Shown here piece after piece: positions 39,140 to 39,601 of a DNA stretch of 64,000 nucleotides. The position numbers and the translations under genes were made by a program. The stretch covers positions 129,476,716 to 129,540,715 of the forward strand of contig NC_051068.1 in the NCBI RefSeq assembly GCF_004664715.2, given 5' to 3'. The notes beneath the pieces were generated by a model, which saw only the letters and a list, made by a program, of their open reading frames with translations, was not told where the DNA came from and did not search any database. The DNA comes from Peromyscus leucopus. Its lineage: Eukaryota; Chordata; Mammalia; Rodentia; Cricetidae. The first letter of the stretch is position 1, and each line of letters begins with the position of its first letter.

Positions 39140-39601
39140 TTGCTAAGGAGAAGCTTCAGCTCAGCCACAAACGGTGGCGGTGGGACCATGGAGGCCGTGG
39201 CTACTGCTCCAAGTTGCTGGCTTTTTCTCATTCTGTTGGTGACTGCGGTGATGCTGCTACCTGGGACAAAGGGTTTACTGCTGCTTGTTCAGAGAAGAAT
39301 TGCCAGGACCATCGTGTTACAAGAAAACATTGGCAAAGGTCAGTTTGGAAAAGTTTGGCAAGACAAATGGTGCAGAGAAATTGCGGTGAAGATTTTCTCT
39401 TCTAGGGAACAACGTTCATGGTTCCAAGAGACGGACATTTATCAGACTGTGATTGCTCCAAACCACAAAGGAGGCACACACACACAAAAATGTCTGCAGG
39501 GAACCATGACCACGCCTAACAGTGACTTTGAAATCTTCAAAAAGATGACAGGATCCCACAAAGATGATTCCACATGGACTATGGTAAAGCCATTAAGCTG
39601 A
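39140..39601 (+). pseudogene. Tgfbr1-derived chimeric fragment inside the ERV-like insertion (open frame, 153 codons)
   Basis: From about 39164 the sequence resembles the Tgfbr1 mRNA leader (gtggcggtgggaccatgg), with ATG at 39188. The encoded product runs MEAVATAPS, a hydrophobic signal-peptide-like stretch ending LLPGTKG, then LLLVQRRIARTIVLQENIGK, GQFGKVW (glycine loop) and IAVKIFSSREQRSWF (catalytic lysine of VAVK), YQTV, then IAPNH. Type I TGF-beta receptor has the same segments in the same order, but its ectodomain, membrane span, GS box and most of the kinase between YQTV and IAPNH are missing. The HRD and DFG motifs are absent, so it cannot be an active kinase. After IAPNH the frame runs into unrelated element sequence and stops near 39600. 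The intron-less joins mean it came from processed RNA. Expression is unknown. Confidence 0.82.

What the first reader, a model, noticed from the sequence alone, without database searches (positions are those of the whole stretch)
39164..39480. Rearranged Tgfbr1 cDNA piece carried inside an LTR element
An intron-less segment has the Tgfbr1 leader and start codon, a signal-peptide-like stretch, the pre-kinase LVQRxIARTIVLQE segment, the glycine loop, the VAVK lysine and then IAPNH from the activation segment. The ectodomain, membrane span, GS box and catalytic core are deleted. It sits between a primer-binding-like site and a polypurine tract, within an element bounded by one target duplication. 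The segment therefore appears to have been captured by a retroelement before insertion, much as retroviruses capture host genes, rather than landing as a separate retrocopy. Identification rests on residue matches to the receptor family; the capture order is inference.
Basis: partly seen in the sequence, partly recalled or inferred. Interest (0 to 1): 0.9.

Follow-up and report, generated by a model that had tools for sequence, protein, structure and literature searches.

The report
Retroelement family carrying spliced Tgfbr1 RNA
More than a thousand places in this genome (likely the white-footed mouse) hold the same spliced join of the TGF-beta receptor gene Tgfbr1; in this window and its sister copies the piece sits inside a retrovirus-like element that likely picked it up when the gene's RNA was spliced onto the element's own splice site, which would show how such parasites come by foreign sequence.

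Summary
Window 39135-39479 is Tgfbr1 cDNA inside an LTR element with one 6-bp target duplication (TAGAAG), a primer-binding site and a polypurine tract. The parent gene is in the same genome, so the joins can be read. Longer copies carry exons 1-4-5-6: exons 2-3 (ectodomain, membrane span, GS box) are skipped at exact exon borders, and the cleanest end at the last base of exon 6. The window copy has a further 342-nt in-frame deletion. The exon 1|4 join occurs at 1,146 places, the exon 5|6 join at 47. One copy has LTRs 99.8% identical, so the family moved recently. Neotoma, Scotinomys and P. californicus share it. The tail after exon 6 also stands behind two unrelated sequences (6 places read), meeting them at the same point; one ends like an unspliced 3' splice site. 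Best reading: a Tgfbr1-promoter transcript spliced exon 6 onto an ERV acceptor, was packaged and was rescued by template switching. The frame shows no purifying selection in a small test, so it is probably a passenger.

The parts
38583..38588 (.). left copy of the 6-bp target-site duplication TAGAAG
   Evidence: identical to 40956-40961
38589..38965 (+). 5' LTR, type A (377 bp, TG...CA), unrelated to the 3' LTR
   Evidence: no match to LTR_B beyond short words; most other family members begin and end at the same points
38968..38985 (+). primer-binding site, a diverged form of TGGCGCCCAACGT, which is exact in 6 of 14 other fetched copies (tRNA-Lys match recalled)
38966..39134 (+). element leader; its last about 45 bases resemble a B1 SINE (recalled)
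   Evidence: shared by the other copies
39135..39272 (+). Tgfbr1 exon 1: last about 53 nt of 5'UTR, start codon 39188, signal-peptide region; 3-nt and 9-nt in-frame deletions
39273..39453 (+). Tgfbr1 exon 4, from its first base, joined exactly to exon 1 (exons 2-3 absent); LVQR...VLQE, glycine loop, IAVK
39454..39479 (+). Tgfbr1 exon 6, last part (IAPNH...), joined to exon 4 by a 342-nt in-frame deletion with AT microhomology
39490..40457 (+). element tail downstream of the captured exons, from the diverged TTTTCTGCAG point
39188..39601 (+). 137-aa open frame through the captured piece into the tail
40458..40470 (+). polypurine tract AAAAAAGGGGAAA
40471..40955 (+). 3' LTR, type B (485 bp), the LTR found on both sides of the body in other copies
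40956..40961 (.). right copy of TAGAAG

Best explanation
The window holds one member of a retrovirus-like LTR element family that carries spliced Tgfbr1 exons 1-4-5-6 (here cut down by a 342-nt deletion; the exon 1|4 join recurs at 1,146 places) and that likely acquired them when a Tgfbr1 transcript was spliced onto the element's own 3' splice site. Shown: exact exon joins, absence of exons 2-3 and of introns, the end at the last base of exon 6 in the cleanest copies, a common tail, leader and LTR, own 6-bp duplications, many join sites, and near-identical LTR pairs in some copies. Inferred: an ERV copy lay in intron 6 of an ancestral Tgfbr1 allele; a transcript from the Tgfbr1 promoter skipped exons 2-3 and joined exon 6 to the ERV acceptor; the chimeric RNA was packaged; reverse transcriptase copied it from the ERV 3' end to near its 5' end and switched to a second ERV RNA to gain leader and primer-binding site. 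The product shows no gag or pol in the frames scanned and would have to move by proteins supplied in trans. A deletion form then likely spread most. The piece shows no sign of selection as a protein and probably rides as passenger.
For: Parent exons and joins. Long form: 18 of 18 fetched loci have exons 4-5-6 without introns (1 has 4 extra nt at exon 4|5); exon 1 is largely present in 16 of 18. Exon 2-3 protein: 6 matches, 2 in the gene itself (99%, 94%), 4 elsewhere at 41-47% that I take for related receptors. 1,146 places with the exon 1|4 join and 47 with exon 5|6, controls 0. Leader-insert-tail between type-B LTRs with own duplications. LTR pair distances 0.002-0.094 (8 copies). One origin: a deletion of 8 nt or more in the exon 1 repeat in 15 of 16 long and 34 of 34 short copies, and 6 base differences shared by both. 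Splice-point evidence: the same tail sits behind X (ending TCTCTATCAG) in 3, and Y in 3, of the 6 non-Tgfbr1 places read, changing at the same point within 1 nt. Neotoma and P. californicus proteins have the exon 1|4 long form, Scotinomys the short one.
Against: Intron 6 of the present Tgfbr1 allele holds no match to this element's tail, to X or to Y (the held gene locus has 143 unread bases). Only 6 non-Tgfbr1 places were read (rows 2-7 of the list, about 170 bases each) and none was shown to encode pol, so that X is the unspliced parent is a guess. Y joins one base differently. In many copies the exon 6 end is blurred by CA or A runs, and L063 and L064 do not show the tail there; a clean join to a TTTTCTGCAG-like sequence is read in 5 of 18 long copies. 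Of the 29 sites where short copies differ from the parent, 15 are not shared by long copies and 8 only partly, so the descent of short from long rests mainly on the common structure. That the 5' joint lies at the Tgfbr1 cap site rests on a recalled human mRNA start.
Confidence: 0.74

Rival explanations
1. The captured Tgfbr1 RNA was an ordinary packaged mRNA, and both joints arose by microhomology template switching, the exon 6 end being a coincidence or a natural RNA end.
For: Template switching of LTR-element RT onto packaged mRNA is described (PMC5408686 passages); the later 342-nt deletion has a 2-nt microhomology.
Against: The joint is at the last base of exon 6, or within a base of it, in the clean copies, and three unrelated upstream sequences meet the tail at the same point.
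Confidence: 0.22
2. The piece is kept because it makes a useful protein (a short decoy or dominant-negative receptor fragment).
For: 26 of 34 short copies are open from ATG to IAPN, the 342-nt deletion and three small shared deletions keep frame, and the glycine loop and VAVK lysine remain in the window copy.
Against: Fixed changes from the parent are 17 amino-acid changing to 9 silent, as expected without selection (0.70-0.71; p 0.52-0.67); two of the three small deletions lie in the GCN repeat of exon 1, where 3-nt steps are expected; the catalytic core is lost. The test is small (26 changes) and its copies are those most like the window.
Confidence: 0.08
3. A Tgfbr1 processed pseudogene made by L1 that landed in a pre-existing LTR element and was amplified with it.
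For: The piece is intronless.
Against: No poly(A) or duplication around the piece; it ends at an exon border rather than the mRNA 3' end; in the listed part the intronless matches stop by residue 139 of the query, exon 6 ending at about 127.
Confidence: 0.02
4. Window copy only: LTR_A and the LTR_B element are two separate insertions brought together by a deletion.
For: LTR_A is very common (8,189 first-look candidates), and L080-L082 show LTR_A elements fused to the Tgfbr1 element.
Against: Both outer flanks carry the same 6-bp TAGAAG at the exact LTR ends, about 1 in 4,096 by chance.
Confidence: 0.1

Closest known systems
Nonautonomous ERVK/mysTR-related subfamilies of the deer mouse (Gozashti et al. 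2023, PMC10089650; passages and section 7 read)
   Same: Same genus (if the genome is P. leucopus); nonautonomous ERVK-like elements; a conserved stretch upstream of the 3' LTR; internal sequence replaced by non-homologous sequence.
   Different: In what I read no host origin of the replaced sequence is named ('tgf' and 'captur' 0 hits in its main text). Identity of our element with a named subfamily was not testable here.
Crocodilian ERVs with captured KIT-ligand or nectin3 mRNA (PMC4299795, passages read)
   Same: Host mRNA captured in an ERV and multiplied in the genome.
   Different: There purifying selection on the captured frames is reported and the nectin3 frame spans the gene; here exons are skipped, later trimmed, and no purifying selection was detected.
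LTR-mediated retroposition (Bs1 of maize; review PMC5408686, passages read)
   Same: Host mRNA sequence within LTR elements by template switching.
   Different: The review reports L1 as dominant in mammals; here an LTR family multiplied a host piece (join at 1,146 places), with a joint that looks like a splice point.
Retroviral oncogene transduction; FAM8A1 in a human ERV (both recalled, not read)
   Same: Cellular spliced sequence inside a provirus.
   Different: The inferred chimera has the cell gene 5' and the virus 3'.
ETn/MusD of mouse (as cited in PMC10089650)
   Same: Nonautonomous element presumed to move in trans; interior unlike its autonomous relatives.
   Different: The foreign interior here is identified as Tgfbr1.

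Membership tests
ERVK-type LTR retroelement | two LTRs TG...CA with 6-bp target duplication | tested here: met
   6 of 8 measured two-LTR copies exact, plus the window
ERVK-type LTR retroelement | primer-binding site and polypurine tract at the LTR borders | tested here: met
   TGGCGCCCAACGT exact in 6 of 14 other copies, diverged in the rest and in the window; purine run before the 3' LTR; tRNA-Lys match recalled
ERVK-type LTR retroelement | betaretroviral gag/pro/pol | tested here: inconclusive
   no retroviral Pfam match in the two main frames of the window element; other frames and relatives not scanned
mys/mysTR-related family | sequence similarity to mysTR | not testable with these tools
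   no mysTR reference sequence on hand
ERV with captured host gene | intronless host exons between PBS and PPT inside the LTRs | tested here: met
ERV with captured host gene | chimera propagated as a unit | tested here: met
   same leader-insert-tail in the window, 13 other short copies and L011; 1,146 and 47 join sites
L1 processed pseudogene | poly(A) tail and target duplication directly around the cDNA; 3' end of the mRNA | tested here: not met
captured gene under coding selection (crocodilian type) | excess of silent change | tested here: not met
   17:9, neutral expectation 0.70-0.71; small test

The most novel reading that the evidence does not exclude
The ERV's own 3' splice site is a standing exon trap: whatever cellular exon is spliced to it in a transcript can become the interior of a new nonautonomous family. 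Tgfbr1 and module Y are two products of the same acceptor, and this is how the 'foreign' interiors of mysTR-like nonautonomous ERVs arise.
Probability: 0.35. Interest if true: 0.87.

Novelty: new variant of a known kind. Interest (0 to 1): 0.74.

Why it matters
The origin of the foreign interiors of abundant nonautonomous ERVs is an open question. Here one interior is identified to the base as exon-skipped host mRNA, with a joint that points to splicing as the capture step and with the parent gene present for comparison. It turns 'replaced by non-homologous sequence' into a testable mechanism and gives a recently mobile example in mammals.

Tried and rejected
Rejected: a single L1 retrocopy (no poly(A) or duplication around the piece); chance similarity (control 0); coding selection; more than one capture (shared deletion and differences). 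Led nowhere: Pfam on the frames (weak kinase hits below cut-off); a trace of the founding insertion in intron 6 (none); identity of X and Y (no match in held sequence); a paper on Tgfbr1 capture in rodents (none in the lists of paper-search; only the open PMC library was searched); paper searches gave background or nothing of use (from 61 passages of PMC5086612 were read, not used). The alignment of short copies against the undeleted parent gave meaningless gap lists downstream of the deletion and was replaced.

Full report
What is there. The finding's interval lies in an LTR element at window 38589-40955, flanked by TAGAAG on both sides. Order: LTR of type A (377 bp), primer-binding site, leader, Tgfbr1 piece, tail, polypurine tract, LTR of type B (485 bp). 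The Tgfbr1 piece gives a 137-aa frame that matches TGF-beta receptor type-1 in the PDB at 5.6e-25.

Which genome. The window lies in G000:C6. A predicted protein named 'TGF-beta receptor type-1-like, partial [Peromyscus leucopus]' sits on a contig of 93,642,674 bases (P0054), the exact length of G000:C9. I therefore take the genome as P. leucopus; this is inference from one length.

The parent gene and the joins. The gene is on C2 with exons in order. With its own splice sites read off, the window piece is exon 1 joined at its last base to the first base of exon 4, then, after a gap of 342 nt in parental terms (a multiple of 3, with AT at the joint), the end of exon 6. So the missing ectodomain, membrane span and GS box are explained by skipping exons 2-3, which keeps the frame, while the missing catalytic core is a second event. 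The glycine loop and the VAVK lysine (IAVK here) remain.

The longer form. One search showed intronless copies covering the rest of exon 4 to the end of exon 6. Eighteen were fetched: in 18 of 18 exons 4-5-6 follow one another without introns (one, L064, has 4 extra nt at exon 4|5); exon 1 is covered by 149 or more of 196 compared bases in 16 of 18 (L065 and L066 are short there). In 5 of 18 the end of exon 6 runs straight, within a base, into a TTTTCTGCAG-like sequence (L010, L012, L056, L059, L065); in most others CA or A runs lie between, and L063 and L064 show other sequence. In the listed part (152 matches, list cut) intronless matches stop by residue 139 of the query, exon 6 ending at about 127; rows beyond that look like single exons of the gene or of related receptors and were not checked one by one. 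Exons 2-3 gave 6 matches: the gene (99% and 94%) and 4 places at 41-47%.

Numbers. The exon 1|4 join as spelled in the window, allowing 3 mismatches in 38, occurs at 594 + 552 = 1,146 places; the reversed control gives 0. The exon 5|6 join as spelled in the parent occurs at 47 places, control 0. These are joins counted, not full elements checked; the first count includes some long copies (L011's spelling is one mismatch away), and older copies are more easily missed, so the ratio of short to long is rough.

Element anatomy. Thirteen other short copies were fetched with flanks, and L011 as a long one. Type-B LTRs bound the body on both sides in eight (L011, L020-L026; L023's 3' LTR is only 121 bp); L027, L028 and L032 have a broken 5' LTR, L029 lacks the 3' LTR, L030 and L031 lack the 5' LTR. 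Of the eight measured pairs, six have identical 6-bp flanks; L011 and L022 do not. LTR distances run from 0.002 (L024, 1 difference in 510 aligned bases, lengths 523 and 510) and 0.010 (L025) to 0.094. The family was therefore mobile recently.

One capture. Among 16 long (two dropped: L065, L066) and 34 short copies, 15 of 16 and 34 of 34 share a deletion of 8 nt or more in the exon 1 repeat. Of the 29 sites where at least 80% of short copies differ from the parent, 6 are shared by at least 80% of long copies, 8 by some, 15 by few or none. Long copies are less alike among themselves (0.81) than short ones (0.94), but the short ones were picked as the best matches to the window. The order long, then short, is inferred from the deletion.

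Other species. Of 120 protein hits, 116 are Scotinomys teguina gene models, and one each is from Neotoma lepida, P. californicus, P. leucopus and an unnamed ENA record. The Neotoma protein has the exon 1|4 join and the long form, and its end reads into the same tail by eye (P0045). P0001 of Scotinomys shows the short join (YQTMIAPNH); a text pattern for that join found 14 of 120, and 4 of 120 are long-like. Scotinomys and Neotoma are Neotominae. The capture is thus likely older than the split of these genera.

Capture mechanism. A search with the tail just downstream of exon 6 gave 4,212 first-look candidates, 40 scored. I read the 140-150 bases upstream at rows 2 to 7 of its list. None of the six has Tgfbr1. 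Three carry sequence X, ending TCTCTATCAG, and three carry Y, ending ATGAAAAAG or GTGAAAAAG and then usually one A; both meet TTTTCTGCAG where Tgfbr1 exon 6 does. Three unrelated upstream sequences changing at one point, one of them a natural exon end and another ending like an unspliced 3' splice site, point to splicing. At the 5' side the homology begins about 53 nt before the start codon, close to where the human mRNA starts (recalled), which fits RT running to the capped end and switching template. An ERV in an ancestral intron 6 is required; the present intron shows none, so that allele must have been lost.

Function. 26 of 34 short copies are open from ATG to IAPN, but changes fixed in the family are 17 amino-acid changing and 9 silent, the neutral ratio. 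I conclude that the piece is probably a passenger. The test is small.

The window copy. Its LTR_A is an independent LTR family: 11 of 11 other members fetched stand without leader, tail or LTR_B in the 3.4 kb held. In one search (40 scored of 2,634 candidates) 4 loci have LTR_A next to the Tgfbr1 element's leader: the window and L080-L082. In L080-L082 that LTR_A is preceded by a polypurine tract and a body of about 0.93 kb; L082 has a further LTR_A with its own primer-binding site before that body, but no LTR_B in the stretch held; L080 and L081 end in LTR_B, but their far 5' ends were not fetched. Together they suggest a three-LTR composite, which no single locus shows whole. The window may be the collapsed form of such a composite or a direct product of strand transfer between two co-packaged elements; the matching TAGAAG supports a single integration.

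Relation to the literature. Gozashti et al. (PMC10089650, passages and section 7 read) suggest that deer-mouse nonautonomous ERVs arose when the interior of an autonomous element was replaced by non-homologous sequence, with the stretch before the 3' LTR conserved. The present element fits and names the sequence. I found no report of Tgfbr1 capture in paper-search; this covers only the open library.

Noticed in passing
window 38589-38965; L080, L081, L082 (about 1200-1594 in each, oriented to the element): Unrelated LTR_A joined at the LTR/primer-binding-site border to the Tgfbr1 element in 4 of 40 scored loci. L082 has a whole LTR_A element in front; L080 and L081 have its body and end in LTR_B; together they suggest a three-LTR composite. 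L081 has the spacer AA before the primer-binding site, as LTR_A elements L082 and L086 do, the others TC.
   Followed up: partly
L030:2863 and L031:2871 (oriented to the element): Two copies without a 5' LTR start exactly at the primer-binding site TGGCGCCC yet have 6-bp duplications (GCAGGT, CCTGTT); in L031 the 3' LTR also ends about 20 bases early. They look like integrase-made insertions of incomplete cDNA whose minus-strand end would read CCA-3'.
   Followed up: partly
L095, L096, L097: Module Y before the shared tail: about 95 nt, open in one frame at least in L095 and L097, preceded by a TTTTTGTCTTTCAG-like sequence; may be a second captured exon.
   Followed up: partly
Scotinomys proteins P0003-P0066; window 39580-39589: 34 of 120 protein hits match a DDSTWTK-like pattern and most then run into unrelated sequence, as if spliced at a donor there (window: ATG|GTAAAG); P0057 continues into an eIF1-like domain (precomputed PF01253). 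Gene models only, no RNA evidence.
   Followed up: partly
window 53227-53738 (-), 44763-45095, 27270-27552: A further full-length LTR_B and two more LTR_A copies in the same 64 kb.
   Followed up: no
Tgfbr1 locus L018 7806-8263: An antisense LTR_B-type fragment lies in intron 8 of the parent Tgfbr1 gene.
   Followed up: no
L022:3493-5046 (oriented to the element): About 1.5 kb inserted in the tail of this copy.
   Followed up: no
window 36000-38216: L1-like 3' end with poly(A) just upstream of the element (recognised by eye).
   Followed up: no
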